A DNA stretch of 64,000 bases from an uncultured Cohaesibacter sp. (lineage in GTDB: Bacteria; Pseudomonadota; Alphaproteobacteria; Rhizobiales; Cohaesibacteraceae): NCBI RefSeq assembly GCF_963676275.1, contig NZ_OY781091.1:1528775-1592774 (forward strand). Reading direction: 5' to 3'. The translations under genes and the position numbers were made by a program. Each line of letters begins with the position of its first letter. The first letter of the stretch is position 1. This document shows positions 20,407 to 34,046 of this stretch, in pieces. The notes beneath the pieces were generated by a model that ran no database searches, had not been told where the DNA came from, and saw only the letters and a list, made by a program, of their open reading frames with translations.

Positions 20407-21627
20407 TCAGCCTATATTGACGACCCCCTTGGCAATCAGGGCTTCAATCTCGCCCTGTTGCAGCCCCAGCTCGCGGGACAAGACAGACCCGCTGTCCTCG
20501 CCCAGAAGGGAAGGAGCCCTTGCGGCCTGAGGCCCCGAGCCATCAAACCGCATCGGGCTTTTGACCAGCTTCAGATCCCCGACCTTGTCATGATGCACGG
20601 TCTCGATCAGTCCGCGGCGGGTCACATGTTCCTGATCAAGCGCCTCGGCCACATCAAGAATGGGTGCATGGGGTACGTCATATTCCGTCAGTTGCGCCAG
20701 CCAGTAAGCGGTGCTGTCCTCTCGCATGCGCTCGAAAATCATGGCTTCCAGCTGGTCGCGGTTGGCCAGCCTGTTCTCATAGAGCGAGAAGCGGATATCG
20801 CTGAGCCATTCTGGCTTGCCGAGACATTTGGCAAAATTCTGCCAGAAGCGGTCCGTCAGGCAGGCAACGATGACATAGCCGTCCGAGGTGGGAAAAGATC
20901 CGTAGGGCACAATGCTTGGATGTCGCGTGCCAACCGGTTGCGGGCTTTGGCCGGTGATGAAATAGATCTGGGAAAGATATCCCAGCATGGCGATGAGGCT
21001 GTCCAGCATCGGAATTTCAACCCGACTTCCCCGTCCGGTAACGCTTCTCTCATGCAAGGCGGCCAGAATGCCGAACATCGAGAAGATGCTACCCGCCATA
21101 TCTCCGAGCGGCAGGCTGAGGCGGTTGGGTGGCTGGTCCGGTTCCCTGTTCAGATGCATCACGCCGGAAAGGGCCTGCACCACAATGTCGAATGCCGGTT
21201 TGTCACTATGGGGGCTGTCATTGCCAAAACCGGTAATCGAGCAATAGATCAGCTTTTCATTCTCGGCCTTGAGAGTCTCATGGCCCAGCCCCAGACGCTC
21301 CATCACGCCGGGGCGGAAATTCTCGATCAGAATGTCGCATTTCGCCGCCAGCCTTTTGGCAATATCGATGCCTTCAGGCGATTTTAGGTCGAGGCTGATG
21401 CTCTGTTTGTTGCGGTTAAGAGCGATGTAATAATGGCTTAGTCCATTCTGGAAGGGTGGGAAATTGCGGGTGTCATCACCACCGCTAATCGGCTCCACCT
21501 TGATCACTTCCGCGCCCAGATCTGCCAGCACCATGGAGGCGTAGGGACCGGAAAGAATGCGCGAGAAATCGAGCACCTTGATGCCATCGAGCGGACCGCG
21601 TCTGCTGCTGTTTTGCGTGTCAGCCAT
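20407..21627 (-). CDS. CoA transferase family III (CaiB/BaiF type)
   Basis: Cytoplasmic CoA transferase of 406 aa that moves CoA between carboxylic acids. N-terminal PLDGIKVLDFSRILSGPYASMVLADLGAEVIKVEP contains the CoA-binding fold, and the family-III catalytic Asp is expected in the following GDDTRNFPP/HYYIALNRNKQSISLDL stretch. Also FNIVVQALSGVMHLNREPDQPPNRLSLPLGDMAGS-type text. It overlaps the thioesterase gene by 8 bp and is the last gene of the minus-strand arm. In this island it may activate the imported acid with succinyl- or acetyl-CoA. Confidence 0.9.
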   Translation of the reverse strand: MADTQNSSRRGPLDGIKVLDFSRILSGPYASMVLADLGAEVIKVEPISGGDDTRNFPPFQNGLSHYYIALNRNKQSISLDLKSPEGIDIAKRLAAKCDILIENFRPGVMERLGLGHETLKAENEKLIYCSITGFGNDSPHSDKPAFDIVVQALSGVMHLNREPDQPPNRLSLPLGDMAGSIFSMFGILAALHERSVTGRGSRVEIPMLDSLIAMLGYLSQIYFITGQSPQPVGTRHPSIVPYGSFPTSDGYVIVACLTDRFWQNFAKCLGKPEWLSDIRFSLYENRLANRDQLEAMIFERMREDSTAYWLAQLTEYDVPHAPILDVAEALDQEHVTRRGLIETVHHDKVGDLKLVKSPMRFDGSGPQAARAPSLLGEDSGSVLSRELGLQQGEIEALIAKGVVNIG

Positions 21628-22051
21628 GTGGGGCCTCCCTTTGCATGATTTTCATGACGGCCGTGGCGCTGGCAAGCAGGTCATCCTCCTGTGAGGTGAC
21701 ATCGGCATCGACGAATATCATTGAGCGCGTTGCCTTGCGGATCTTCGCCCGCGCCGTTATCAGCTCTCCTTCCCGAGCCGCACCCAGAAAGCGGGTGTCC
21801 ATCTGGATTGTGACTGTGGGCTTGCGGCCTGCCGCATTCCAGGCTTCAAGCGCGATGGTCTGATCGAGCAGACTTGTAATCACGCCACCATGCAAACTGC
21901 CGATATGATTGAGATGCGCAGGCCCGACACGCAAGGCATAACGCTTGGAACCATCCTCTTCCCTGCGCCGCAGCAATGGCCCGATAAGACCGACAAAGCC
22001 ATCGATAGTCATGGCCTGCCAGTCCTCATTCCCCGTAAGTGACTTGGTCAA
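21620..22051 (-). CDS. PaaI-family hotdog thioesterase
   Basis: Single-domain hotdog protein, 143 aa. The motif AHLNHIGSLHGGVITSLLDQTIALEAW is the PaaI signature, with HGG and Asp as active-site elements. It likely hydrolyses an acyl-CoA to recycle CoA or clear a dead-end intermediate of the island. Encoded between the IclR regulator and the CoA transferase on the minus strand; only 20 bp follow the IclR stop. Confidence 0.85.
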   Translation of the reverse strand: MTKSLTGNEDWQAMTIDGFVGLIGPLLRRREEDGSKRYALRVGPAHLNHIGSLHGGVITSLLDQTIALEAWNAAGRKPTVTIQMDTRFLGAAREGELITARAKIRKATRSMIFVDADVTSQEDDLLASATAVMKIMQREAPHG

Positions 22052-22071
22052 TTTCCCCTCCCGATCCTTTT

Positions 22072-22845
22072 TCAGATTTGTAATTCTTGTATTTCGTTCC
22101 TTATTTCCATCATGGCCTTGGCCAGCTTCGGGATATCCTCGGACTGCAATCGTTCCGAAATGCCGATGCTGACGAGGGAGCGCACCATCTTTCCCTCTCT
22201 ATTGAAAACCGGGACAGCCACCACTGTCACCCCGGAAATATAGACCCCCTGATCGACCCCATAGCCCAGCTTGCGCGCCGCTTCGACCTGCTTCAGCCAA
22301 TCGTCGAATCGCGGGGGATGATCCCAGACCAGCTTGTCGAATTCCTTGCGCAATAACAGAGGCTCCAGCTTGTTATAGGCGGCAAACAGACGCCCCGTGG
22401 CGCTGATTAGCGGCGGAAAGCGGCTGCCGAAATCGACCTGCAGGCGAAAGGGCAGTGTGGATTGTGACAGGGCAATCACCACCATCTGCGCCGGTTCCGC
22501 CAGTTGCGTCGCAATCGCGGTGACGCCGAATCGATTCGACAATTCCGACAGGCGAGGCTGTACCAGAGTGGAGAAGGAATTCTTTTGCAGCGCGGATCGC
22601 GCCAGCGGCAGGATACCGATGCCGATGGAGTAGCGCTTGGTGTCCGGATCAAAGTCCACCAGCCCCTCATCCTGCAGAACCCGGAGGATGTGAAGGCAGG
22701 TACTGGGCACCAGTCCGAGATTTCTCGCCAGAGGATTGACCCCTACGGGGTCATCGGACCGGGCCAGCTGTCTCAGGATTGCCAGCGCACGCGTTACCGC
22801 CGGAACCTGCCTTTTGCTTTGTTGCTTCGCTTCTTTCTCGACCAT
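22072..22845 (-). CDS. IclR-family transcriptional regulator
   Basis: Regulator of about 257 aa: N-terminal winged helix (PAVTRALAILRQLARS...VNPLARNLGLVPSTCLHILRVLQDEGLV) and C-terminal GAF-like effector domain (STLPFRLQVDFGSRFPPLISATGRLFAAY, YGVDQGVYISGVTVVAVPVFN). I start at ATG 22845 because AGAGGTG lies about 8 nt upstream; an ATG at 22866 is in frame too. It faces the acyl-CoA ligase operon across a 120-160 bp region with a perfect palindrome, so it probably controls both arms. The effector is unknown, perhaps the imported acid or its CoA ester. Confidence 0.9.
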   Translation of the reverse strand: MVEKEAKQQSKRQVPAVTRALAILRQLARSDDPVGVNPLARNLGLVPSTCLHILRVLQDEGLVDFDPDTKRYSIGIGILPLARSALQKNSFSTLVQPRLSELSNRFGVTAIATQLAEPAQMVVIALSQSTLPFRLQVDFGSRFPPLISATGRLFAAYNKLEPLLLRKEFDKLVWDHPPRFDDWLKQVEAARKLGYGVDQGVYISGVTVVAVPVFNREGKMVRSLVSIGISERLQSEDIPKLAKAMMEIRNEIQELQI

Positions 22846-22883
22846 CTTCAGGGCACCTCTATCCATCTGATTTCTCTGATTTT

Positions 22884-22899
22884 ATTGTATATATACAAT
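22884..22899. promoter_or_regulatory. Putative IclR operator, perfect 16-bp palindrome
   Basis: ATTGTATATATACAAT is its own reverse complement. It lies in the divergent region between the IclR gene and the acyl-CoA ligase gene, 13 bp upstream of the -35 candidate of the rightward promoter. Confidence 0.65.
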
Positions 22900-22911
22900 G
22901 AAAAAATCATA

Positions 22912-22941
22912 TTGACAATAGCATAGCAATCTACCTATCGT
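22912..22941 (+). promoter_or_regulatory. Candidate sigma-70 promoter of the acyl-CoA ligase operon
   Basis: TTGACA at 22912-22917 is a perfect -35 box; TATCGT at 22936-22941 after 18 bp is a moderate -10 box. A second small dyad, CGTTG-T-CAACG at 22939-22949, overlaps the -10 region and could bind a repressor. Confidence 0.4.
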
Positions 22942-23005
22942 TGTCAACGGAACAAGCAGCACGGGAAGGCTGACTTGAGAAAAAGAGGTGGGGAGGCAGT
23001 CGGGC

Positions 23006-24565
23006 ATGAAGCGCCTAACGGAATATACGTCCTATTCGGATGCGCAGAGGCATTATTCAAAGGACGCGCTTTGGGATTTGTTTGAAGGCAGTCGCGAACG
23101 TTTCAACATTGCGCATGAATGCATCGACCGCTATCGCGATGTGGCGGAAACCGCGATCAGCATTGCCCATGCCGACGGGCGCGACGAGATCATTTCCTTT
23201 GCAGAGATTTCCAGACGGTCATCTCAGATTGCCCATTATCTGAAGGAGCGTGGCATTCGCAAGGGAGACCGCATCGCGGTGATGATCGAGCCGACCCTGC
23301 CATTCTACTGCTGCCTTTACGGAGCGATGAAGGCCGGTGCGGTCGCCGTTCCGATGTTCACACTATTCGGCCCCGACGGCATCCAGTTGCGTGTCGGCGA
23401 TTGTGAGCCGGAGGTTTTTTTCACCAATGACGACAAGTTTCAGGACGCGCTGGTGGGCGGTGCAAAAAACGTGATCGTTGCCGACAAGGAGTTTCTTGAC
23501 GGTCTCGATGGCTATCCTGAAACCTATCAGTGGGATACGACCGGGGATGATCTGGCGGTGTTGCAATATACCTCGGGCACGACGCGCCTGTTGCCTGCTG
23601 CGGTTCATCATAGCCATCGCTCGATCGTCACCCTGATGGTTGCCGCTCTTTATGGTACAGGCATCCGTCCCGGAGACCGCTTTTTCTGCCCGTCCTCTCC
23701 GGCATGGGGGCATGGCTTGTGGCACGGCACATTGGCTCCGCTTGCCATGGGCGTCTCGACGGGTACCTTCAGCGGTCGCTTTGATCCGGTGCGCCTGCTC
23801 AAGGCACTACAGGATTTCAAAATAACCAATCTGACGGCGGCGGCCACCCACTACCGCATGATGCGCAATTGCGGCGAGGCCGGGAAATACCGCTATTGCC
23901 TCGAAAAGCTCAGCTTCACCGGCGAGCCGATTGATTCCGAAACCGCAAAATATGTCGAGCAGGTTTTCGGCTCCAAGGTCCGCTCCATGTATGGCACCAC
24001 CGAGATCGGCGTCATCATTTCCAATTATCCCGGAGCGGGCGATCTGGAAGTGCGTGACGGTGCCATGGGCAAGGCGGTGCCGGGCGTCGAGGTCGAGGTG
24101 CAGAAAGCCGATGGCACGCCGGCAGCCCCCGGCGAAACCGGTGAATTGATGGTGCGCAAGAGAGGGGAATGGTTCCCCACCAAGGATCTCGGACGCGTCG
24201 ATGAAGACGGCTATTTCTATCATGCAGGCCGCGCCGATGACGTGATCATTTCGGCAGGCTGGACCATGAGTGCCGTCGAGATCGAAGACGCGATCCTGCG
24301 TCACCCCAAGGTGGCCGAATGCGCGGCGATTGGCGTGCCCGATGAATTGCGCGGGCAGGTGGTCAAGGCTTTCATTCTGCTCAAGGGCAAGGGCAGCGAT
24401 GGCCTTGATGAAGAGATACAGGAGCTGGTGCGCTCCAATCTCAGCCGCCATGAATATCCAAGACAGATTGAATTTGTCACCTCCTTGCCAAAGACCCCCG
24501 CAGGCAAGGTGAACCGGAAAATCCTGCGTGATCAGGAAGCGAAATCCGCGGCGACTGCTCAATAG
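23006..24565 (+). CDS. AMP-dependent acyl-CoA synthetase/ligase
   Basis: Adenylate-forming ligase, 519 aa from ATG 23006 (GGGGAGG at 22990-22996; a GTG at 22988 is less well placed). It would activate a carboxylic acid with ATP and CoA. Visible: P-loop region YTSGTTRLLPAAVHHSH, which deviates from the usual TSGTTGxPKGV but resembles a known medium/short-chain acyl subfamily; SMYGTTEIG; YFYHAGRADDVIISAGWTMSAVEIE; and the C-terminal catalytic lysine in KTPAGKVNRK. First gene of a plus-strand operon with a dehydratase, TRAP transporter and methylcrotonyl-CoA carboxylase, so a short branched acid is the probable substrate. Confidence 0.9.
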   Translation: MKRLTEYTSYSDAQRHYSKDALWDLFEGSRERFNIAHECIDRYRDVAETAISIAHADGRDEIISFAEISRRSSQIAHYLKERGIRKGDRIAVMIEPTLPFYCCLYGAMKAGAVAVPMFTLFGPDGIQLRVGDCEPEVFFTNDDKFQDALVGGAKNVIVADKEFLDGLDGYPETYQWDTTGDDLAVLQYTSGTTRLLPAAVHHSHRSIVTLMVAALYGTGIRPGDRFFCPSSPAWGHGLWHGTLAPLAMGVSTGTFSGRFDPVRLLKALQDFKITNLTAAATHYRMMRNCGEAGKYRYCLEKLSFTGEPIDSETAKYVEQVFGSKVRSMYGTTEIGVIISNYPGAGDLEVRDGAMGKAVPGVEVEVQKADGTPAAPGETGELMVRKRGEWFPTKDLGRVDEDGYFYHAGRADDVIISAGWTMSAVEIEDAILRHPKVAECAAIGVPDELRGQVVKAFILLKGKGSDGLDEEIQELVRSNLSRHEYPRQIEFVTSLPKTPAGKVNRKILRDQEAKSAATAQ

Positions 24566-24593
24566 TGCCGTTTGAATTCTGGAGGAGAAAGAC

Positions 24594-25733
24594 ATGAATG
24601 AGACCCTGCATCGGAAATTTCCGAAAATAACACCCGAGGGGCTTGATGAATTGCGCAAGCGCATCGGCGTCAAGATTGAAAAGACCGTCGAGCCATGGTG
24701 CTACGAGGCCACAAGAGACAATATTCGCCACTATGCCCACGGCATCGGTGATGACAATCCGCTCTGGTGTGATCCCGATTATGCCAAGGCGACCAGATAT
24801 GGCGATGTGATTGCTCTGCCGAGTTTCCTGTTTGCCACCAGCCGTATCATTTCCGGCTATGTCGGCGGGCTGCCGGGCGTGCATGCCATGTGGTCGGGGG
24901 CCAATTGGACATGGCACAAGCCAATCCTGCGCAATACCGAATTCCGCACCGAAGCCTTCCTCAAAGACCTGATCGAGCATGATACCCGCTTTGCCGGCAA
25001 GGCCATCCAGCAGATCTATCATGTCGATTTCTATGATGCCAAAAATGGCGATCTGCTCGCCGAGGCAGACAGCTGGTGCTTCCGCACGGATCGCGATCAG
25101 GCCCGCGAGAATGGCACCAAATATACCGCTGCCAAGGAGAAGGGCCGCCGGGTCTACACGCAGCAAGAACTCGACAGCTTCTATAAATATTACGAGCAGG
25201 AAACCATTCGCGGTGCCGAGACGCGCTATTGGGATGATGTCAATGAAGGCGATGCATTGCCAACCATGGTCAAGGGACCGATGACGGCGACCGGCTTCAT
25301 TGCCTATGCGCAGGGCTGGGGCGGTCTCTATATCCGGGCCAACAAGCTGGCATGGCAACTCCAGCAGAAGCATCCGTCTGCCGGTATCAAGAACCGCTTC
25401 GGTATTCCCGACTGCCCCGAACGGGTGCATTGGGAGGAGGAGTTCGCGCTCGAGGTGGGCGCTCCGGGAGCCTATGACTATGGACCGGAACGCACCTCCT
25501 GGCTCACCCATCAGGTCACCAACTGGATGGGCGATGACGGCTTTCTGTTTAAGGCCAATTGTCAGGTCCGGCGGCACAATCCCGAAGGCGACATCATTCT
25601 TATCCATGGTAGGGTGGCCCGCAAATTCGAGGAAAATGGCCGCTATCTGGTCGAGATCGAGCAACGCGCAGAACAGCAGGATGGCGAGCTTTCTGCGATC
25701 GGCTCGGCGATTGTGGAATTGCCCAAACGATAA
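24594..25733 (+). CDS. Double-hotdog acyl dehydratase (MaoC/FAS1-like)
   Basis: Predicted hydratase/dehydratase of 379 aa with two hotdog domains. The first (about 20-165) carries HYAHGIGDDNPLWCDPDYA, the FAS1-like dehydratase signature with the catalytic Asp; the second (about 220-375) carries MTATGFIAYAQGWGG and WMGDDGFLFKANCQVRRHNPEGDIIL-type strands. Such proteins add or remove water at an enoyl/3-hydroxyacyl-CoA. Here it sits directly after the acyl-CoA ligase (RBS GGAGGAG) and before the transporter. A dehydration of 3-hydroxy-3-methylbutyryl-CoA to 3-methylcrotonyl-CoA would link the ligase to the carboxylase; that role is inference. Confidence 0.8.
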   Translation: MNETLHRKFPKITPEGLDELRKRIGVKIEKTVEPWCYEATRDNIRHYAHGIGDDNPLWCDPDYAKATRYGDVIALPSFLFATSRIISGYVGGLPGVHAMWSGANWTWHKPILRNTEFRTEAFLKDLIEHDTRFAGKAIQQIYHVDFYDAKNGDLLAEADSWCFRTDRDQARENGTKYTAAKEKGRRVYTQQELDSFYKYYEQETIRGAETRYWDDVNEGDALPTMVKGPMTATGFIAYAQGWGGLYIRANKLAWQLQQKHPSAGIKNRFGIPDCPERVHWEEEFALEVGAPGAYDYGPERTSWLTHQVTNWMGDDGFLFKANCQVRRHNPEGDIILIHGRVARKFEENGRYLVEIEQRAEQQDGELSAIGSAIVELPKR

Positions 25734-25765
25734 GGGATTCCTGTTTCAGCCTTTGGGAGGTTTGG

Positions 25766-26251
25766 TTGAACGCTTTCGGAACAATCCTGAACAAACTGGA
25801 AGACGCCCTGCATCTGGGAGGGTGTTTGGGTCTTGTCGCCGTGGCGGCACTCATCAACGCGGACATTCTGCTGCGGTTCTTTTTCAATGAACCGGTTCAG
25901 ATCCAGTTCGAACTGACCGAGCTGTTTCTTATGCCTGCGTTGGCCACATTGTCCCTTTCTCGCGTCTATCGCGAGGGAGGGCATCTGTCGATTGATCTTG
26001 TCCCGAAATATTTCGCTGGAGATATGGGGCTGTTCATCAAGGTCGTGCAGCTGTTTCTGCCTGCGGTCTTCTTTGCCGCAGTCACCTTCATGTCCGGCAA
26101 GTTTGCCATTCGGGCCATTCTTGGCGGCGAGATTGAATATGGCGTCATCGATTGGCCGATGGGCTGGGCCTATGCCCTGATCCCGCTGGGATGCGGTGTG
26201 CTGTGCCTGCGGCTGGTCCACGACTTTCTGAAAAAGGTCGTCATGACATAA
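25766..26251 (+). CDS. TRAP transporter small permease (DctQ family)
   Basis: Four-helix TRAP subunit of 161 aa. Start is a TTG at 25766 with GGGAGG five bases before it. Family text: LRFFFNEPVQIQFELTELFLMPALATL, then YREGGHLSIDL near residue 70, and the last helix WAYALIPLGCGVLCLRLVHDFL. Forms the membrane complex with the large permease encoded after the binding protein. Confidence 0.88.
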   Translation: MNAFGTILNKLEDALHLGGCLGLVAVAALINADILLRFFFNEPVQIQFELTELFLMPALATLSLSRVYREGGHLSIDLVPKYFAGDMGLFIKVVQLFLPAVFFAAVTFMSGKFAIRAILGGEIEYGVIDWPMGWAYALIPLGCGVLCLRLVHDFLKKVVMT

Positions 26252-26292
26252 ATGTCTTGAAATAAATGCGAATTTTCTTTGGAGGAGAGAAA

Positions 26293-27297
26293 ATGAACAA
26301 TAGAAAAAGCTATGCAATCGCTTTCGTAACCCTTGTGACGCTTGGTCTTTCCGGCGCCGAAGCCGAGACCTTGCGCCTTGGTGATTTCCAGTCAACCAGC
26401 CATATCGTGTCTGTGGAGGGAACGGCAAAATGGATGGCGGCTGTCGAGAAGGAAACCAACGGATCAGTCAAGTTTCAGCATTTCCCCGCCCAGCAGGCCG
26501 CCAAATCCAAGGCGCAGCTTGATGCGGTCAATAGCGGCATTCTGGATGCGGCCCTGCTCGGGGCGATCTATCATGCCGACAGCCTGCCGATGAATTCGGT
26601 GGTCGGTCTGCCCGGCTTTTACGGCAGCGCGGTTCAAGGCACCAAAGCCCTGCAGACCATGTTGGCACAAGGCCCCTTGCGGGATGAATTGCTTGCCGCC
26701 GGTGTGACGCCGATCTTCGGCTTCGTGTTGCCACCCTATCAGGTTCTGGCCAAGAAAAGACTTGGCATGCCCGCCGACTGGGAGGCACTTGACGTGCGAA
26801 CATCCGGCTCCACCCAAGCCATGACGGCGCGCGCCGTCGGGGCCGTAGGCATTTCCATTCCCGGACCGGAAGTCTATACGGCGGTTGAGCGTGGCCGTCT
26901 TGATGCGGTGCTGTTCCCTCTGGCTTCCGTGCCGGGCTACAAGCTCAACGAGGTTGTCAGCCATATTTCCACCAATGGCTCCTTTGGTGGCTACAGTTTC
27001 ATCATGGTGCTCAAGACATCCGTGTTCGAGGGTCTGGCCAAGGAGATACAGCAAACCCTGCTGCGCCTTGGTGCCGAATCCGCCGCCCACGTTGCCAAGG
27101 CACAGGATGATTCCGTCACCGGTCTGATTGCGCAATGGCAGTCAGAGGGCATCGATACCTACAGTTTCTCCGATGAGGAACTGGCCGCGCTGCGCAAGGC
27201 GATGGAGGCGGTGAGCACAGATTGGGCCGAACGCATCAATAGCGACAAGGCTGAGGCGGTTCTGGAAAGCTACAAGCAACTGACGGGCAACCAATAG
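26293..27297 (+). CDS. TRAP transporter solute-binding protein (DctP family)
   Basis: Periplasmic binding protein, 334 aa, from ATG 26293 with GGAGGAG at 26281-26287. Signal peptide MNNRKSYAIAFVTLVTLGLS.. cut near AEA-E. The conserved mid-region is divergent: LDVRTSGSTQAMTARAVGAVGISIPGPEVYTAVERGRLDAVL replaces the usual RVP..GA.PTPM text, although the Arg of DVRTSG is at the expected position. This divergence suggests a ligand different from sialate or C4-dicarboxylates. Context points to a short branched hydroxy acid or enoate. Confidence 0.88.
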   Translation: MNNRKSYAIAFVTLVTLGLSGAEAETLRLGDFQSTSHIVSVEGTAKWMAAVEKETNGSVKFQHFPAQQAAKSKAQLDAVNSGILDAALLGAIYHADSLPMNSVVGLPGFYGSAVQGTKALQTMLAQGPLRDELLAAGVTPIFGFVLPPYQVLAKKRLGMPADWEALDVRTSGSTQAMTARAVGAVGISIPGPEVYTAVERGRLDAVLFPLASVPGYKLNEVVSHISTNGSFGGYSFIMVLKTSVFEGLAKEIQQTLLRLGAESAAHVAKAQDDSVTGLIAQWQSEGIDTYSFSDEELAALRKAMEAVSTDWAERINSDKAEAVLESYKQLTGNQ

Positions 27298-27322
27298 TCT
27301 GCATCGGACATGAGCATTGAAC

Positions 27323-27344
27323 GGGTGGCCGCCTTTGGCCACCC
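27323..27344 (+). terminator. Intercistronic hairpin after TRAP binding-protein gene
   Basis: GGGTGGCC (27323-27330) and GGCCACCC (27337-27344) make a perfect 8-bp stem with a 6-nt loop in the gap before the large permease. Confidence 0.6.
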
Positions 27345-27370
27345 ATATCCAGGGAGCGCGCGTTCACTCG

Positions 27371-28660
27371 ATGCTGACTTTTCTTTTCATACTAATCCTG
27401 CTCGCCTTGCTGATGGCTTTGCGCTTGCCGATCGCCTTCGCAATGGGCATTGCCGGCTTTGCAGGCTTGAGCATCCAACTGGGATATGGCCCGGCTCTTG
27501 CCGTGCTTGAACGGGTCTTCTATGACAGTTCGTCCTCCTTCATTCTGGTGGCCATTCCGCTGTTTATCCTGATGGCGGAAGTGCTGACAGCAGGGGATGT
27601 GACCCGCCGAGCCATCGTTGCCTGTCAGTCCTGGATCGGTCATGCCAAGGGCGGTCTTGCCATGGCAACCGTTGCCGCTTCGGTTATTCTGGCGGCTCTT
27701 GTCGGCAGCTCAACCGCTTCCACCGCCGCAATGGCCGCCTCGGCCTTTCCTGAAATGCGCGCCCATAAATATGCCGACCGTCTGTCCGCAGCCGTGGTCA
27801 GCGTTGGTGGCACTTTGGCTGTCGTCGTGCCCCCGTCGATTGTTCTTGTGGTCTATGGTGTCCTGACCGAAACCTCGATTGGCAAGCTTTTTATTGCGGG
27901 TATTGTGCCCGGGCTGATGACCGCAGCCGGTCTGGCGCTGGTTATCAAGATCATCGCCCACAGCACCGATCAGGCTCCCAAGGGCGATCCCTTTGATCTG
28001 GGCAAGGCCGTGCGTACCAGCCGTCATATCATTCCCATGACCCTGCTGCTGCTGACCGTGATCGGGGCGATCTATGGTGGCCTCACATCCCCGTCCGAAG
28101 CAGCCGCGCTCGGTGTCATGGGGGCGCTGATCATCGTTATCCTGCAACGCACCTTGAGCTTTCAGGCTTTCAATCGCTCAGTCAGCGGCGCCATTCGTGC
28201 CACCGTGATGATCGTGACCATCGTCGTTTGCTCGGCGATCTTCTCGAACTATCTCGCCTTCACGCGCATCACGCAGGAATTGCTGGAATTTGTGTCGAGC
28301 ACGGATCTCTCCCGCGAAGTCATCATGGGCATCATCATCCTGATCCTGCTGATTTTGGGCATGTTCATGGACCAGTTGGCGATCCTGTCGCTGGCCATGC
28401 CGCTCGCCTTTCCCATGGCCATGGCCCTTGATTACAATCCGGTCTGGTTTGGAATCGTGGTGACGAAGACGGTGGAGATCGGCCTTCTGACACCGCCTCT
28501 GGGATTGAATGCCTATGTTGCTGCAGCCCAGACCGGCGTGCCCCTGAAAGTGATTTTCCGCGGAATCTTGCCCTTCTTGGCAATGGAGATGCTGGTGTTG
28601 CTGATCCTGCTGGCCTTTCCGCAAATAACCCTTTGGCTTCCTGCTCTGATGCTCAAGTAA
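27371..28660 (+). CDS. TRAP transporter large permease (DctM family)
   Basis: Large membrane subunit, 429 aa when begun at ATG 27371 (MLTFLFILILLALLMALRLPIAFAMG). A TTG at 27317 is in frame but would place the hairpin inside the gene and adds non-family sequence. Signature blocks: SFILVAIPLFILMAEVLTAG, AALVGSSTASTAAMA, VVSVGGTLAVVVPPSIVLVVYGVLTE and NPVWFGIVVTKTVEIGLLTPPLG. Third gene of the transporter in the order Q-P-M. Confidence 0.92.
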   Translation: MLTFLFILILLALLMALRLPIAFAMGIAGFAGLSIQLGYGPALAVLERVFYDSSSSFILVAIPLFILMAEVLTAGDVTRRAIVACQSWIGHAKGGLAMATVAASVILAALVGSSTASTAAMAASAFPEMRAHKYADRLSAAVVSVGGTLAVVVPPSIVLVVYGVLTETSIGKLFIAGIVPGLMTAAGLALVIKIIAHSTDQAPKGDPFDLGKAVRTSRHIIPMTLLLLTVIGAIYGGLTSPSEAAALGVMGALIIVILQRTLSFQAFNRSVSGAIRATVMIVTIVVCSAIFSNYLAFTRITQELLEFVSSTDLSREVIMGIIILILLILGMFMDQLAILSLAMPLAFPMAMALDYNPVWFGIVVTKTVEIGLLTPPLGLNAYVAAAQTGVPLKVIFRGILPFLAMEMLVLLILLAFPQITLWLPALMLK

Positions 28661-28768
28661 CGCGCGGGCAGGAACTACAAGACCATTGAAATAGCCATGA
28701 AATCTCTTTTCGCGGAGTGCCTGAACGCCTCCGAACGGGGGAGCTGCATGGCAAGTGGAGAAAGACAG

Positions 28769-30376
28769 ATGACCATATTGCACAGCGCAATATCGCCCGG
28801 TTCCCCTCGATTTGAGGAGAATAGACTGGCAATGGAAGGCCAGTTGCTGCGGATTGAAAAGGAAGCGCAACGCATCATGACGGGTGGGTCGGATGCTGCC
28901 CGTGCCCGCCATGTCGCGCGGGGCAAATTGCTGCCACGCGACAGGATTGCCGGACTGCTTGACCCCGGTTCGCCCTTTCTGGAGGTTGGTCTGTTTGCCG
29001 CTTCCGGTCTTTATGGCGATGAAATCCCCGCAGCCGGAGCCATTGCCGGAATAGGCAGGGTTGAGGGACGCGACTGCATGATCCTTTGCAACGATGCCAC
29101 CGTGAAGGGGGGAACCTATTTCCCCATGACGGTCAAGAAGCATTTGCGGGCGCAGGAGATAGCCGAGCAAAATGGCCTGCCTTGCATCTATCTGGTGGAT
29201 TCAGGCGGGGCCAACCTCAACAATCAGGACGAGGTCTTCCCCGACAGAGACCATTTCGGTCGCATTTTCTACAATCAGGCCCGCATGAGCGCAAAGGGTA
29301 TTTGTCAGATCGCTGTGGTCATGGGCTCCTGCACCGCAGGCGGTGCCTATGTCCCAGCCATGAGCGATCAGACCATCATCGTGCGCGAGCAGGGCACCAT
29401 ATTTCTTGCCGGACCACCGCTGGTGAAAGTCGCAACAGGCGAGGAGATCGATGCCGAGACACTGGGAGGAGGGGACACCCATACACGCCTCTCGGGGGTG
29501 GCGGATTATCTGGCGGATGACGACCGGCACGCGCTTGCCCTTGCTCGGGAAATCGTCAGACATCTGGGACCGGCCCCCCGTCCCAATATCGACCTGATCG
29601 AGGCCAAAGCTCCCCTTCTTTGCATGGATGAGGTGATGGGCATCGTTCCGGCCAATGACAAGACGCCTTATGATGTGCGCGAAATCATTGCCCGGTTGGT
29701 GGATGCTTCGGACTTTGCCGAATTCAAACCGCGCTATGGCACGACGCTGGTGACCGGCTTTGCCCATATCGACGGGGTGCCGGTGGGTATCCTTGCCAAT
29801 AACGGCGTCCTGTTTTCGGAAAGCTCGCTGAAGGGGGCGCATTTCATTGAGCTTTGCTGTCAGCGCAAGATACCGATCCTCTTTCTGCAGAATATTACCG
29901 GCTTCATGGTCGGTTCCAAATATGAGGCCGCAGGCATAGCCAAGGATGGAGCCAAGCTGGTCACAGCCGTATCCACCGCGGCCGTGCCCAAGATCACCGT
30001 GATCATTGGCGGCTCCTATGGTGCTGGCAACTATGGCATGTGTGGCCGTGCATTCGGGCCGCGCTTTGTCTGGATGTGGCCCAATGCCCGCATCTCGGTG
30101 ATGGGTGGGGCACAGGCCGCCGGTGTTCTGGCCGATGTCCGCCGGGCAGGCATTGAAGCCGGAGGCGGTCGCTGGTCCAGCGAAGAAGAAGCGGAGTTCA
30201 AGCGCCCGACGCTGGAAATGTTCGAGCGCCAGTCTCAGCCGCTTTATGCCTCTGCCCGGCTCTGGGATGACGGCATCATTGATCCGCGCAAGACCCGCGA
30301 GGTTGTTGCCCTGTCCCTGCGTGCAACACTGAACATGCCCATCGCCGACACCCAATTCGGTCTCTTCAGGATGTGA
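28769..30376 (+). CDS. mccB: Methylcrotonyl-CoA carboxylase beta subunit
   Basis: Carboxyltransferase subunit (535 aa from ATG 28769) that moves carboxylate from biotin to 3-methylcrotonyl-CoA. Visible: [19 protein letters not shown] at the start, [78 protein letters not shown], and the second crotonase-like half with [25 protein letters not shown] and [20 protein letters not shown], all typical of MccB rather than propionyl-CoA carboxylase. Alternative starts at 28748 and 28697 are less family-like. Overlaps the alpha-subunit gene (TGATG). Confidence 0.9.
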
Positions 30377-32376
30377 TGATGAAACAGCTTTTTGACAAGA
30401 TACTTGTTGCCAATCGGGGCGAGATCGCCTGCCGCATCATGCAAACGGCCAAACGGCTGGGGCTGCGCACGGTCGCGGTTTATTCCGATGCCGATGCATC
30501 CGCCCGCCATGTGTCTCTTGCCGATGAAGCGGTATATATCGGCGGCTCCAGCCCGGCGGAAAGCTATTTGCGCCTCGAGGCGATCCTTGATGCAGCGCGC
30601 CGAACGGGGGCCGGAGCCATTCATCCCGGCTATGGGTTCCTCTCGGAAAATCCCGACTTTGTCGAGGTGGTCGAAGCCGCCGGGCTGGTCTTCATCGGAC
30701 CCTCGGCGCAATCGATCAGGGCGATGGGCCTCAAGGATGAAGCCAAGCTCTTGATGGAGAAGGCTGGCGTTCCCGTTGTGCCCGGATATCAGGGCGCTGA
30801 ACAGGGAGAAGATTTCCTCGCCGAATGTGCTGACAGGATCGGCTATCCGGTTCTGATCAAGGCCCGCGCCGGTGGCGGTGGCAAGGGCATGCGCAAGGTT
30901 GATGATCCCGCCAGTTTCAGGGCCGCACTTGCTTCTGCCAGACGCGAGGGGAAAGCCGCCTTTGGGGATGATCATGTATTGGTCGAGAAATATATCACCA
31001 CCCCGCGCCATATCGAGGTTCAGATCTTTGGCGACAGCCACGGCAATGTGGTTCACCTGTTCGAGCGGGATTGTTCCTTGCAGCGGCGGCACCAGAAGGT
31101 GATCGAGGAGGCTCCAGCTCCGGGCATGAGCGCAGAAGTCCGCAAGGCACTGACGGAAGCTGCTATCACAGCCGCAAGAGCGATCCGTTATCGCGGTGCG
31201 GGAACCATCGAGTTCATCGTTGATGGCTCCGGTCCGCTCAGGCCTGACGGCTTCTGGTTCATGGAGATGAACACCCGCCTGCAAGTGGAGCATCCGGTAA
31301 CAGAGGCCATCACCGGTCTGGATCTGGTGGAATGGCAATTGCGCATTGCCGCAGGAGAGCTCTTGCCTCGTCGGCAGGAAGAGATATCAATGAGCGGTCA
31401 TGCCTTCGAGGCCCGGCTCTATGCGGAGAATCCTGCCAATGATTTTCTGCCCGCCACAGGGCAGTTGCATGCACTCACCTTTGATGAGAATGCCCGCAAT
31501 GATACCGGCGTCAGAAGCGGAGATGTGATCTCGCCATGGTATGACCCGATGATTGCCAAGATCATCACCAGAGGTGAAACCCGCTCTCAGGCGTTGGCGC
31601 GATTGCGCAAGGCGCTTGCCGCCACCCATGTGGCAGGAACGGTGACCAATGCTGCCTTTCTGGCAAGGCTCGCCTCCCACGAAGGCTTTTGCAATGAACA
31701 GTTTGACACCGGCCTCATCGAGCGCGATCTGAAAGGATTGTGCCAGACGCCTGCGGTCAGCGAATTGCATCTCGCCTTCGCGGCCATTGCCGCATTGGAT
31801 ATTCGCCCCGATCCGCCGCTTGCGGCGCATCGCGGCTGGCGTCTTTGGGGAGAGGCAAAATCGGATGTCAAGCTTCTCGCCGGGGGTGAAACATACGAGC
31901 GCTCAGTCATCTATCATGCAGATAATTCGCTTTCCCTTGCGGGGGGAGACGAACCTGCCGACTTGCAGGAACTGGAACGGGATGGCGCTTGGCTGATAGC
32001 CCGCTACGGGCCGACGCGCCGCCTGATCAAAGCCCATGTCAGCCGGACCGTGCAGGGTGACAAGATGCATCTTTCGGTTCTCTGCGATGGTATCTGCCAC
32101 GCGTTCCATTGTCAGGATGCAAGGTCCGGCAGCCATGCCCACAGCGACAAGAGCGATGCGGTGATGGCCCCCATGACCGGCATCGTCATCGAGCTTTCCG
32201 TTTCTCCCGGCGATGTGGTGCGCAAGGGTGACAGTCTGGGCATCATGGAAGCGATGAAGATGGAAACCAGCTTCACCGCACCCCGTGACGGCGTCGTGGC
32301 CGATGTCTGCTGTGCTGTCGGTGCTGCGGTCGAGGGAGGCGCTGTGCTTGTATCATTCGTGGAGCTGGCCGGATGA
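30376..32376 (+). CDS. mccA: Methylcrotonyl-CoA carboxylase alpha subunit, biotin-dependent
   Basis: Biotin carboxylase plus biotin carrier in one chain, 666 aa. N-terminal FDKILVANRGEIACRIMQTAKRLG, ATP-grasp loop KARAGGGGKGMRKV, ERDCSLQRRHQKVIEEAPAP, and EMNTRLQVEHPVTE are the biotin carboxylase motifs. The C-terminal carrier has EAMKMETS with the biotinylated lysine at about residue 628. The stop of mccB overlaps the ATG, and the next gene overlaps its own stop (ATGA), so expression is coupled. Partner specificity (methylcrotonyl rather than propionyl or geranyl) is set by the beta subunit and context. Confidence 0.9.
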   Translation: MMKQLFDKILVANRGEIACRIMQTAKRLGLRTVAVYSDADASARHVSLADEAVYIGGSSPAESYLRLEAILDAARRTGAGAIHPGYGFLSENPDFVEVVEAAGLVFIGPSAQSIRAMGLKDEAKLLMEKAGVPVVPGYQGAEQGEDFLAECADRIGYPVLIKARAGGGGKGMRKVDDPASFRAALASARREGKAAFGDDHVLVEKYITTPRHIEVQIFGDSHGNVVHLFERDCSLQRRHQKVIEEAPAPGMSAEVRKALTEAAITAARAIRYRGAGTIEFIVDGSGPLRPDGFWFMEMNTRLQVEHPVTEAITGLDLVEWQLRIAAGELLPRRQEEISMSGHAFEARLYAENPANDFLPATGQLHALTFDENARNDTGVRSGDVISPWYDPMIAKIITRGETRSQALARLRKALAATHVAGTVTNAAFLARLASHEGFCNEQFDTGLIERDLKGLCQTPAVSELHLAFAAIAALDIRPDPPLAAHRGWRLWGEAKSDVKLLAGGETYERSVIYHADNSLSLAGGDEPADLQELERDGAWLIARYGPTRRLIKAHVSRTVQGDKMHLSVLCDGICHAFHCQDARSGSHAHSDKSDAVMAPMTGIVIELSVSPGDVVRKGDSLGIMEAMKMETSFTAPRDGVVADVCCAVGAAVEGGAVLVSFVELAG

Positions 32377-33233
32377 CCAAGCATGTCAGCATCTACGAGG
32401 TCGGGCCGCGCGATGGCTTGCAAAATGAGACCGCGATCATTCCAACCGCGCAGAAGATCGCCCTGATTGATCTGCTCACCGAGGCCGGTTTTGCCAGAAT
32501 AGAGGCCACCAGCTTTGTTTCCCCCAAATGGGTGCCGCAACTGGCCGACGCAAAAGAGGTTATGGCCGGCATCTCACGGGTGCAAGGGGTCACTTATGGT
32601 GTGCTTACGCCCAATCTGAAAGGAGCACAAATGGCTCTTGCTGCCGGGGCGAGTGAATTCGCGATCTTTACCTCGGCCTCGGAAGGCTTTTGCCAGAAGA
32701 ATATCAATTGCTCCATTGCCGAGAGCCTTGTTCGCTTCGAGCCCGTGTTGGCATTGGCCAGAGAGCATTCCATTCCCGTGCGTGGCTATGTCTCCTGCAT
32801 TGTGGCCTGCCCCTATGATGGCCCCGTCGAGCCGGAAGCTGTGGGCCATGTCGCAAAGGCTCTTTTCGGGATGGGTTGTCATGAAATCTCGCTGGGTGAC
32901 ACCATTGGTGCGGGAACGCCGGAGAGCATCTCCCGAGCGCTGGAAGCGGTTTTGGCTCATGTCAGCGCTGACAATCTGGCGGGGCATTTTCACGACACCA
33001 ATGACAAGGCGCTTGCCAATGTGAAGGCCGCATTGCGGCTTGGCCTGCTGAGCTTTGACAGCGCCGCAGGCGGACTGGGCGGCTGTCCCTATGCCCCCGG
33101 AGCCAAGGGCAATATTTCCTCGCGCGCTCTGGTCACCATGCTGGAAGAAGAAGGCTTCGCAACGGGCATCGATCTGGACCGGTTGGCGGCAGCGGAGAAG
33201 CTGATCACCAGCTTTCACACACCCTTGAGATGA
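32373..33233 (+). CDS. Hydroxymethylglutaryl-CoA lyase
   Basis: TIM-barrel lyase splitting HMG-CoA to acetyl-CoA and acetoacetate, 286 aa. Key text: YEVGPRDGLQNE (9-19, with the metal Asp and catalytic Arg), SFVSPKWVPQLADA, SLGDTIGAGTP, the metal histidines in GHFHDTNDKALAN, and the GGLGGCPYAPGAKGN loop with the catalytic cysteine. The start ATG overlaps the stop of mccA. It completes the final step of leucine-type degradation. Length matches bacterial MvaB/HmgL. Confidence 0.94.
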   Translation: MTKHVSIYEVGPRDGLQNETAIIPTAQKIALIDLLTEAGFARIEATSFVSPKWVPQLADAKEVMAGISRVQGVTYGVLTPNLKGAQMALAAGASEFAIFTSASEGFCQKNINCSIAESLVRFEPVLALAREHSIPVRGYVSCIVACPYDGPVEPEAVGHVAKALFGMGCHEISLGDTIGAGTPESISRALEAVLAHVSADNLAGHFHDTNDKALANVKAALRLGLLSFDSAAGGLGGCPYAPGAKGNISSRALVTMLEEEGFATGIDLDRLAAAEKLITSFHTPLR

Positions 33234-33254
33234 ATGACAAAAGGAAGCAACCAG

Positions 33255-34046
33255 ATGAGCTATCAGACCATTCGCATCGAGCAGGACGAACAGGGCATTG
33301 CCAGCGTAACGCTCAACCGGCCCGACAGGCATAATGCCATGAATGAAGAAATGATCATGGAACTCACGCAGGCGGCGGCATCGCTTGGCGGCGATGAGCG
33401 CGTGCGCGTCATTCTTCTTGCCGGAGAAGGCAAGAGCTTTTGCGCCGGGGGCGATCTGGGCTGGATGCAGCAGCAGGCGGGCAAGGACAGGGACGGCAAG
33501 ATCGAACAGGCAAGCAAGCTTGCCGCCATGCTGGCCAGATGGAACAGCCTGCCAAAGCCTGTCGTGGGCCGTATTCACGGCGCCGTTTATGGCGGTGGCA
33601 TGGGGCTGGTTGCCATCTGTGATGTGGTCGTTGCGGCTGATGATTGCCGTTTCGCCCTTACCGAAACCCGTCTCGGGCTCGTGCCCGCGACAATTGGCCC
33701 TTTCGTGGTGGCGAGGCTGGGCGGATCATTTGCTCGTCAGGTCTTTTTCAATGCGCGATCCTTTGACGCGGACTTCCTCATGAGGGCAGGGCTTGTTGCC
33801 CGTGTCTGCGCGGCCGCAGAGCTTGACGATGCCGCAAGGAAGGAAGCTGGCTATTTTCTTGAATGCGCTCCGGGGGCTGTGGCAGATGCCAAGGCTCTGT
33901 GCCGAAAGCTGGCCGGGGCGGATCCCGGGGAGATGAAAGAGATGACAGCCAATGCGCTCGCTGATCGCTGGGAAACATGTGAGGCGCAGGCGGGAATTGA
34001 AGCCTTTTTCGCCAAAACATCCCCGCCATGGCGAACAGGGCAGTAG
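33255..34046 (+). CDS. Enoyl-CoA hydratase family, likely methylglutaconyl-CoA hydratase
   Basis: Crotonase-fold enzyme, 263 aa from ATG 33255, which has AAGGAAG well placed; ATG 33234 is also in frame. Visible: SVTLNRPDRHNAMNEEMI, GEGKSFCAGGDLGWM (first oxyanion element), GAVYGGGMGLVAICDVVVAADDCRFALTETRLGLVPATIGPFV (second element and catalytic Glu). Position between HMG-CoA lyase and the end of the operon points to hydration of 3-methylglutaconyl-CoA to HMG-CoA (LiuC/AUH role). Distinguishing it from a general enoyl-CoA hydratase relies on context. Confidence 0.88.
   Translation: MSYQTIRIEQDEQGIASVTLNRPDRHNAMNEEMIMELTQAAASLGGDERVRVILLAGEGKSFCAGGDLGWMQQQAGKDRDGKIEQASKLAAMLARWNSLPKPVVGRIHGAVYGGGMGLVAICDVVVAADDCRFALTETRLGLVPATIGPFVVARLGGSFARQVFFNARSFDADFLMRAGLVARVCAAAELDDAARKEAGYFLECAPGAVADAKALCRKLAGADPGEMKEMTANALADRWETCEAQAGIEAFFAKTSPPWRTGQ

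What the first reader, a model, noticed from the sequence alone, without database searches (positions are those of the whole stretch)
20407..34046. Self-contained uptake and catabolic island for 3-hydroxy-3-methylbutyrate or 3-methylcrotonate
The island joins a CoA-activating enzyme (acyl-CoA ligase, plus a family III CoA transferase), a double-hotdog dehydratase, a TRAP importer, methylcrotonyl-CoA carboxylase, methylglutaconyl-CoA hydratase and HMG-CoA lyase around one IclR regulator. Isovaleryl-CoA dehydrogenase, which normally feeds this route from leucine, is absent, while a dehydratase and a dedicated importer are present. The set therefore reads as: import of 3-hydroxyisovalerate, activation, dehydration to 3-methylcrotonyl-CoA, carboxylation, hydration, cleavage to acetyl-CoA and acetoacetate. 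I know of no described dedicated system of this kind; the substrate is inferred.
Basis: partly seen in the sequence, partly recalled or inferred. Interest (0 to 1): 0.78.

Follow-up and report, generated by a model that had tools for sequence, protein, structure and literature searches.

The report
Importer-fed entry to leucine breakdown
This bacterial gene island appears to import a small branched acid, most likely 3-hydroxyisovalerate, attach it to coenzyme A, turn it into 3-methylcrotonyl-CoA and burn it with the second half of the leucine pathway; related sets under the same switch sequence occur in other bacteria, but the exact acid is still a guess.

Summary
The gene set is real at the stated coordinates. 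It has two parts: a conserved module (family III CoA transferase, PaaI-type thioesterase, IclR regulator, AMP-forming ligase, double-hotdog enzyme, TRAP importer) and a 3-methylcrotonyl-CoA carboxylase (MCC) block (mccB, mccA, HMG-CoA lyase, hydratase). The module often occurs without the block beside it (61 of 80 named loci), so their union could have been accidental. Three results argue against that. (1) They are joined in at least five arrangements. (2) The IclR-ligase gap carries a palindrome, ATTGTNTATATACAAT, within 2 mismatches in 57 of 64 loci; in two Thalassospira genomes another copy heads an unlinked mccB-ECH-mccA-HMGL operon, and in a third genome one heads an operon with mccB and mccA. 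(3) In the window's genus, isovaleryl-CoA dehydrogenase (IVD) and native MCC are both present (7 genomes) or both absent (7), while all 4 island genomes have MCC without IVD. The module very probably makes 3-methylcrotonyl-CoA outside leucine oxidation. 3-Hydroxyisovalerate is the best guess for the acid, because a conserved hydratase-type enzyme always accompanies the ligase; it is untested. The plan has a published parallel, the beta-valine (bva) cluster. New variant of a known kind.

The parts
20407..21627 (-). Family III CoA transferase (406 aa), module gene; proposed to move CoA onto the incoming acid
   Evidence: PF02515 408.6 bits; nearest solved relatives a formyl-CoA transferase (10uh) and succinate-hydroxymethylglutarate CoA-transferase (9br6); at least 34% match in 69 of 80 named loci
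21620..22051 (-). PaaI-type hotdog thioesterase, module gene
   Evidence: PF03061 56.2 bits, TIGR00369; match in 60 of 80 named loci
22072..22866 (-). IclR-family regulator
   Evidence: PF01614 + PF09339; at least 40% match in 75 of 80 named loci
22884..22899 (.). Operator: perfect palindrome ATTGTATATATACAAT
   Evidence: sequence; within 2 mismatches in 57 of 64 IclR-ligase gaps versus 0.2 of 64 in shuffles; TTGACA follows after 12 bp in 57 and 11 bp in 4; only exact RTTGYMYAKAKACAAY site in the own genome
22912..22941 (+). sigma-70-like promoter of the plus-strand operon (TTGACA-18-TATCGT); a minus-strand promoter-like site overlaps (22947-22920)
   Evidence: consensus match only
23006..24565 (+). 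AMP-forming acyl-CoA ligase (acetate/MbcS-like), 519 aa
   Evidence: PF00501, PF13193; best NCBIfam PRK04319 322.8 and MbcS 310.3 bits, both far below their cut-offs
24594..25733 (+). Double-hotdog (MaoC/FAS1-DH type) acyl-CoA enzyme, 379 aa; predicted 3-hydroxyisovaleryl-CoA dehydratase
   Evidence: PF13452; model pLDDT 71.3, best PDB folds 5i7n, 4v12, 4e3e, mesaconyl-CoA hydratase 8hgn; His279 invariant in 16 of 16 sequences down to about 33% identity
25766..26251 (+). TRAP small permease DctQ
   Evidence: PF04290
26293..27297 (+). TRAP solute-binding protein DctP
   Evidence: PF03480 109 bits; nearest folds TRAP binding proteins, many of aromatic acids
27365..28660 (+). TRAP large permease DctM
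   Evidence: PF06808 284.8 bits
28697..30376 (+). 3-methylcrotonyl-CoA carboxylase beta (mccB); real start perhaps 28748 or 28769
   Evidence: 3u9r 790.8 bits versus GCC 455.7
30373..32376 (+). biotin carboxylase/carrier alpha subunit (mccA)
   Evidence: biotin carboxylase models and C-terminal biotin carrier region
32373..33233 (+). HMG-CoA lyase
   Evidence: NF004283 425.8 bits, cut-off 246; 1ydn 374.7 bits
33234..34046 (+). crotonase, predicted 3-methylglutaconyl-CoA hydratase
   Evidence: NF005675 359 bits, cut-off 350; nearest solved 3i47, 4kpk and a putative isohexenylglutaconyl-CoA hydratase 4zu2

Best explanation
The island is an IclR-controlled catabolic regulon. A TRAP importer brings in a C5 branched acid, most likely 3-hydroxy-3-methylbutyrate (3-hydroxyisovalerate). 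The ligase activates it with ATP; the family III CoA transferase may later pass CoA from a downstream thioester to new substrate. The double-hotdog enzyme removes water to give 3-methylcrotonyl-CoA. MccAB carboxylates it, the crotonase hydrates 3-methylglutaconyl-CoA, and HMG-CoA lyase releases acetyl-CoA and acetoacetate. Shown by comparison: gene families, unity of module and MCC block, shared palindrome, absence of IVD. Inferred: the acid, the dehydration, the role of transferase and thioesterase, that IclR is what binds the palindrome, and the direction of control. Estimated probability about 0.8 that the module's product is 3-methylcrotonyl-CoA and about 0.5 that the imported acid is 3-hydroxyisovalerate.
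For: MCC block beside the module in several arrangements: after dctM as mccB-mccA-HMGL-ECH (window, G175, G302, G355, G012; 14 of 80 named loci have this type, of which L070 and L086 are cut by contig ends and L060 has mccB-mccA but no HMGL/ECH in the 3.4 kb behind); after dctM as mccB-ECH-mccA-HMGL (L079); on the opposite strand directly after the CoA transferase (L087; mccB and mccA also in L089); upstream with HMGL downstream (L102) and downstream of a native IVD-bearing cluster (L118). Same palindrome at mcc operons apart from the module: L134 (site 6929, mccB from 7062) and L135 (site 14150, mccB from 14033 on the minus strand), both heading mccB-ECH-mccA-HMGL, and L136 (site 14572, first gene from 14490, operon with mccB and mccA about 9 kb from that genome's ligase). 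Genus pattern: 7 of 7 native-MCC genomes have IVD, 7 of 7 without MCC lack it, 4 of 4 island genomes have MCC and no IVD. No other catabolic family recurs in more than 8 of 96 loci. In 79 of 79 named loci with both, the double-hotdog protein is closer to the window's than the ligase is (loci were chosen by the double-hotdog protein, which biases this).
Against: No substrate was tested. The nearest solved binding proteins take aromatic or other acids. The double-hotdog model is only moderate (pLDDT 71.3) and low around His279. Off-module sites of the palindrome are not more numerous than the reversed-pattern control (8 strand hits at 6 places versus 7 in 61 genomes): only their position before mcc is telling, in 3 genomes, and two of these are one genus; the other genomes searched, all ten Betaproteobacterial ones included, show no exact site at an unlinked mcc. 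Module/MCC co-occurrence alone is weak: 9 of 10 module genomes in the order sample versus 193 of 387 others, p=0.02, uncorrected for kinship. Two module genomes show no MccB at the cut-off used: G172 (= L082), whose IVD gene lies about 1 kb from a contig end, and L086, whose mccB is cut by a contig end. If the substrate were 3-methylcrotonate, the double-hotdog enzyme would have no role. Transferase and thioesterase have no demonstrated step.
Confidence: 0.55

Rival explanations
1. The imported acid is 3-methylcrotonate (senecioate): ligation alone gives 3-methylcrotonyl-CoA, and the double-hotdog enzyme is a side or reverse hydratase.
For: Shortest route to MCC; ligase nearest to short-chain acid ligases; every comparative result for MCC coupling fits equally.
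Against: The double-hotdog enzyme accompanies the ligase in 79 of 80 named loci and is the better conserved of the two, which a dispensable side enzyme would not predict.
Confidence: 0.2
2. The acid is another 3-substituted isovalerate whose CoA ester the double-hotdog enzyme eliminates to 3-methylcrotonyl-CoA, for example beta-valine (loss of ammonia) as in the bva cluster, or a thio or onium analogue.
For: The bva cluster joins a transporter, a CoA ligase and CoA-dependent lyases to MCC, a hydratase and HMG-CoA lyase (PMC4619459).
Against: The bva enzymes are a PaaK-type ligase and crotonase-type lyases, other families; the named-function folds nearest to the double-hotdog model are mostly hydratases/dehydratases.
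Confidence: 0.12
3. The module serves an unrelated acid and merely sits beside an MCC block used for leucine.
For: mccB is not in the stretch held for 61 of 80 named loci nor in those of the Pseudosulfitobacter and Comamonas plasmids.
Against: Several linkages, the palindrome at unlinked mcc operons, MCC without IVD in island genomes, and MCC in 48 of 49 module genomes (three of the 49 have it in the fetched stretch).
Confidence: 0.1

Closest known systems
bva (beta-valine) cluster of Pseudomonas sp. SBV1 (PMC4619459; outline, abstract and passages seen)
   Same: Transporter, CoA ligase, beta-eliminating lyase, both MCC subunits, enoyl-CoA hydratase and HMG-CoA lyase together; enters at 3-methylcrotonyl-CoA; no IVD in the gene table seen
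   Different: PaaK-type ligase, crotonase-type ammonia lyases, amino acid transporter, other regulator, also a thiolase. Here: acetate/MbcS-type ligase, double-hotdog enzyme, TRAP importer, CoA transferase, thioesterase, IclR
liu (leucine/isovalerate) pathway cluster (make-up recalled)
   Same: MCC, methylglutaconyl-CoA hydratase and HMG-CoA lyase
   Different: IVD missing from the island and from the genome; extra importer, ligase, double-hotdog enzyme and CoA transferase
atu (acyclic terpene) pathway with geranyl-CoA carboxylase (recalled; the GCC structure paper PMC4673880 seen in passages)
   Same: Homologous gamma-carboxylation of an alpha,beta-unsaturated CoA ester
   Different: Carboxylase MCC-like (790.8 versus 455.7 bits), with a Phe in the PDRDHFGR segment as in the P. 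aeruginosa and human-type MCC chains printed
MaoC-type double-hotdog hydratases (mesaconyl-CoA hydratase, itaconyl-CoA hydratase, mycobacterial dehydratase MSMEG_6754)
   Same: Fold and acyl-CoA hydratase/dehydratase class
   Different: No solved protein matches by sequence at better than E=0.025; own conserved family of about 380 aa

Membership tests
3-methylcrotonyl-CoA carboxylase (not GCC or PCC) | Beta subunit closest to MCC beta chains | tested here: met
   790.8 bits to 3u9r, 455.7 to GCC 5ikl, 276.4 to the best ordinary PCC; two chains with acetyl/propionyl labels (4q0g, 9tps) score 745.2 and 733.7 and may be MCC-type
3-methylcrotonyl-CoA carboxylase (not GCC or PCC) | Phe at the site of MCC Phe191 (Gly in GCC) with a 3-residue insertion (PMC4673880) | tested here: inconclusive
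   Window has Phe in PDRDHFGR aligned without a gap to Phe of MCC chains; that this is Phe191 is my inference and the GCC alignment was not printed
liu leucine/isovalerate cluster | MCC + methylglutaconyl-CoA hydratase + HMG-CoA lyase | tested here: met
   hydratase specificity inferred
liu leucine/isovalerate cluster | Isovaleryl-CoA dehydrogenase | tested here: not met
   Absent from island and genome; the same query, IVD, finds IVD in 7 of 7 native-MCC congeners
bva beta-valine cluster | CoA ligase plus CoA-dependent lyase feeding MCC with no IVD | tested here: inconclusive
   Ligase and a candidate lyase/dehydratase present, but the activity cannot be tested here
bva beta-valine cluster | PaaK-type ligase and crotonase-type ammonia lyases | tested here: not met
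   Ligase best matches acetate/MbcS models and the lyase candidate is a double hotdog
MaoC/double-hotdog acyl-CoA hydratase-dehydratase | Double-hotdog fold | tested here: met
   moderate model
MaoC/double-hotdog acyl-CoA hydratase-dehydratase | Catalytic Asp/His pair | tested here: inconclusive
   His279 invariant in 16 of 16 aligned sequences, but the usual D-x-N-P-x-H spacing (recalled) is not kept there and the N-terminal GDDNPLW lacks the His
Family III CoA transferase | CoA_transf_3 domain | tested here: met
   408.6 bits; acid pair unknown
TRAP transporter (DctPQM) | P, Q and M components adjacent | tested here: met
   ligand not testable with these tools

The most novel reading that the evidence does not exclude
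A widely transferred, IclR-controlled regulon dedicated to 3-hydroxyisovalerate (HMB), built around an uncharacterised, highly conserved double-hotdog family that dehydrates a tertiary 3-hydroxyacyl-CoA. Its spread would mean that 3-hydroxyisovalerate, known as a leucine metabolite of animals and (recalled) as a marker of biotin shortage, is a common nutrient in sea and soil.
Probability: 0.45. Interest if true: 0.72.

Novelty: new variant of a known kind. Interest (0 to 1): 0.6.

Why it matters
It separates MCC from leucine oxidation: in these genomes a carboxylase usually annotated as leucine catabolism must serve another substrate. It gives a function hypothesis for a large, poorly characterised enzyme family (532 candidate stretches encoding relatives) and a palindrome that can be used to predict the regulon in other genomes. 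Annotation that infers leucine degradation from MCC alone would be wrong for such genomes.

Tried and rejected
Plain coincidence of two neighbours: rejected on several linkages and the shared palindrome. Geranyl-CoA carboxylase/terpene pathway: rejected on MccB similarity; an AtuA-family neighbour was seen in the Pseudosulfitobacter plasmid and a family that I read as AtuA in 3 of 96 loci, so it is no constant partner. Leucine-only service: rejected for this genome (no IVD). Substrate from nearest solved binding proteins: uninformative (18-24% identity, many ligands). Co-occurrence of module and MCC across the order: only weakly informative (202 of 397 genomes have MCC). A scan with 2 mismatches (its listing was cut, so sites in the later genomes, two further ones of G408 among them, were not all seen) brought no further mcc operon; the three extra sites that I fetched (G450 C16, G407 C6, G398 C5) lie beside genes that I do not connect with the pathway. 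The off-module exact site in G302 lies about 290 bp before a 3-oxoacid CoA-transferase subunit A/B pair, a fitting partner for acetoacetate, but the orthologous stretches of G000 and G175 have no such site (best 6 mismatches), so I count it as chance. GC content of the island does not stand out from its flanks, so recent transfer into this genome is not shown by composition. Papers: no described 3-hydroxyisovalerate catabolic cluster turned up in ten searches of an open-licence library that lacks most subscription journals; passages were read in PMC4619459, PMC4673880 and PMC7176365 only, the rest were listings.
Full report
WHAT IS THERE. The window (1528775-1592774 of a 5,033,865-base single-contig genome) carries twelve genes at 20407-34046. 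Minus strand: family III CoA transferase, PaaI-type thioesterase, IclR. Plus strand: AMP-forming ligase, double-hotdog protein, TRAP DctQ-DctP-DctM, mccB, mccA, HMG-CoA lyase, crotonase. mccB/mccA and mccA/HMGL overlap, and the lyase and crotonase frames abut. The carboxylase is MCC-type (790.8 bits to P. aeruginosa MCC beta, 455.7 to GCC; two chains labelled acetyl-/propionyl-CoA carboxylase reach 745.2 and 733.7, other PCC chains at most 276.4), the lyase an HMG-CoA lyase, the crotonase near 3i47, 4kpk and a putative isohexenylglutaconyl-CoA hydratase.

IVD IS MISSING FROM THE WHOLE GENOME. PF00441 finds three acyl-CoA dehydrogenases of 561, 419 and 543 aa; none reaches a curated NCBIfam cut-off, and by eye they look FadE-like, glutaryl-CoA-dehydrogenase-like and long FadE/DmdC-like (recall). 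The IVD query from L118, itself IVD by 630 bits to 4o5m, gives nothing at E<=1e-60 here. The window's MccB is the only match at E<=1e-110, with 3 of 10 candidates scored. Five other carboxyltransferase matches exist; of the two strong ones I looked at L005, which scores 736.5 bits on the methylmalonyl-CoA decarboxylase/PCC-type model. A second HMG-CoA-lyase-like gene lies elsewhere (L011).

TWO MODULES. The double-hotdog protein at E<=1e-30 occurs in 18 of 397 genomes of the order; the close clade (69% identity or more) is in 10. A scan of genome contigs with alignment A1 gave 532 relatives, best 80 kept. Among these 80: ligase (50% or more) in 79, IclR (40% or more) in 75, CoA transferase (34% or more) in 69, thioesterase in 60, DctP (50% or more) in 40. 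In Betaproteobacterial loci the TRAP genes give way to a family that I read as tripartite-tricarboxylate binding proteins (30 of 96 loci; annotated so in the Comamonas plasmid). mccB of 66% or more lies in the stretch of 19 of 80: 14 directly after dctM in the window's order (L070 and L086 cut by contig ends; L060 has no HMGL/ECH in the 3.4 kb behind mccA), L079 after dctM in another order, L087 and L089 on the other strand after the CoA transferase, L102 and L118 beside native clusters that have IVD within a few kb. In 61 it is not in the stretch held. Linkage alone could thus have been accidental, so I looked for independent signs.

SIGN 1, RECURRENCE. Across the flanks of 96 loci the only families found in more than 8 loci are the module genes, the binding protein family, one cluster (20 loci) that looks like an antisense frame, and mccA, mccB, HMGL and crotonases (frames were chosen by a GC-position score, so rare partners may be missed).

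SIGN 2, ONE PALINDROME. The gap between divergent IclR and ligase genes carries ATTGTNTATATACAAT: 0-2 mismatches in 57 of 64 gaps, 3 in 3, 4-5 in 4; single-base shuffles give 0.2 of 64 at 2 or fewer. TTGACA follows 12 bp later in 57 and 11 bp later in 4 (one contig is counted twice, as L047 and L082). In the window it is a perfect palindrome at 22884-22899 with a promoter-like TTGACA-18-TATCGT behind it. An exact scan of RTTGYMYAKAKACAAY in 61 module genomes finds sites in 54. Six places lie outside the module: 8 strand hits, no more than the reversed-pattern control's 7. What tells is where they lie. Two head unlinked mccB-ECH-mccA-HMGL operons, 116-117 bp before mccB, in Thalassospira profundimaris (G408, L134) and T. 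lucentensis (G453, L135). A third, in G004 (L136), stands with TTGACAAT at the usual 12-bp spacing before an operon of ABC importer genes, a luciferase-type monooxygenase, a flavin reductase, mccB and mccA, about 9 kb from that genome's ligase. Of the other three, two lie inside unrelated reading frames (L138, L139), and one (G302, L137) lies about 290 bp before a 3-oxoacid CoA-transferase pair but is not kept in G000 or G175. In G408 that operon holds the only MccB found, while IVD is on another contig. So the module's regulator very probably also commands MCC apart from the module; that IclR binds this palindrome is inferred.

SIGN 3, MCC WITHOUT IVD. The order sample holds 18 genomes of the window's genus. 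Seven without the island have a native MccB (65-66% identity in the six listed; one, G379, is only 64% complete) and all seven have IVD; seven have neither. The four with the island (G000, G175, G302, G355) have only the island MccB and no IVD. Exact test of island against MCC-without-IVD: p=3.3e-4, not corrected for kinship. Among 17 genomes with the window-type block, 7 have no IVD (60% identity or more), 8 have IVD and a second MccB, 2 have IVD and only the island MccB. Of 49 module genomes searched (50 asked, L069 not held), 48 have an MccB match at E<=1e-110; three of the 49 have it in the fetched stretch. The exception, L082 (= G172), has an IVD gene about 1 kb from a contig end. Of eight module genomes checked, all have IVD; in six of the seven Rhodobacterales-type ones it lies within about 4 kb of mccB or beside it, that is, in an ordinary native cluster.

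HOW IT LIKELY WORKS. Ligase and double hotdog are the constant core and MCC the recurrent outlet, so the core should make 3-methylcrotonyl-CoA. If the acid were 3-methylcrotonate the ligase would suffice; a hydratase/dehydratase fold (mean pLDDT 71.3; 5i7n, 4v12, 4e3e, mesaconyl-CoA hydratase 8hgn, itaconyl-CoA hydratase) with 83% mean column identity in 50 sequences points to 3-hydroxyisovalerate. His279 is invariant in 16 of 16 sequences down to about 33% identity. The transferase may recycle CoA onto new substrate after the ligase has primed the cycle, as in carnitine metabolism (recalled); this is inference. The binding protein model (pLDDT 81.5) is a TRAP receptor whose nearest folds bind aromatic and other acids, so it does not settle the ligand.

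WHAT IS KNOWN. The bva cluster (PMC4619459; outline and passages) joins a transporter, beta-valinyl-CoA ligase, two ammonia lyases, MCC, hydratase and HMG-CoA lyase, entering at 3-methylcrotonyl-CoA. It is the same plan with different enzymes, so the claim that no dedicated system of this kind is described needs narrowing. The GCC/MCC structure paper (PMC4673880; passages) gives the Phe/Gly rule. Degradation of tert-amyl alcohol through prenol and 3-methylcrotonate in Aquincola is recalled, not seen. No paper on a 3-hydroxyisovalerate regulon appeared in the searches.

VERDICT. Observation confirmed. New variant of a known kind; interest 0.6.

Noticed in passing
L136:3589-14572 and L050:777-19413 (genome G004): A larger palindrome-marked cluster: ABC importer, luciferase-type monooxygenase, flavin reductase and mccBA in one operon; ligase, double hotdog, acetyl-CoA-hydrolase-type CoA transferase, a hydroxyisobutyrate-dehydrogenase-like protein and an SMP-30-type lactonase nearby. 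Suggests an upstream compound oxidised to the same C5 acid.
   Followed up: partly
L052:9488-10625 (G355) and L044:17080-17908 (G175): In two sister genomes the double-hotdog gene and the HMG-CoA lyase gene, respectively, are split over two frames: decay or sequencing error.
   Followed up: no
L037:19380-20678: On the Pseudosulfitobacter plasmid the module is followed by an AtuA-family gene and a TAXI-type TRAP system instead of the MCC block.
   Followed up: partly
L137:3938-5547 (G302): A degenerate copy of the palindrome about 290 bp before a 3-oxoacid CoA-transferase A/B pair, which could activate acetoacetate; not conserved in G000 or G175, so probably chance.
   Followed up: yes
L007 (own genome C1:4645081-4646511): A weak carboxyltransferase match with one TAA inside the matched stretch.
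   Followed up: no
L039 (plasmid pJE1): Double hotdog and CoA transferase sit in a large catabolic region that also has mccA (53%) and mccB (64%) homologues about 11-13 kb away.
   Followed up: no
L053:9794-10903 and loci L026-L036: A second group of double-hotdog proteins (about 33-39% identical) in other genomes of the order, function unknown.
   Followed up: no
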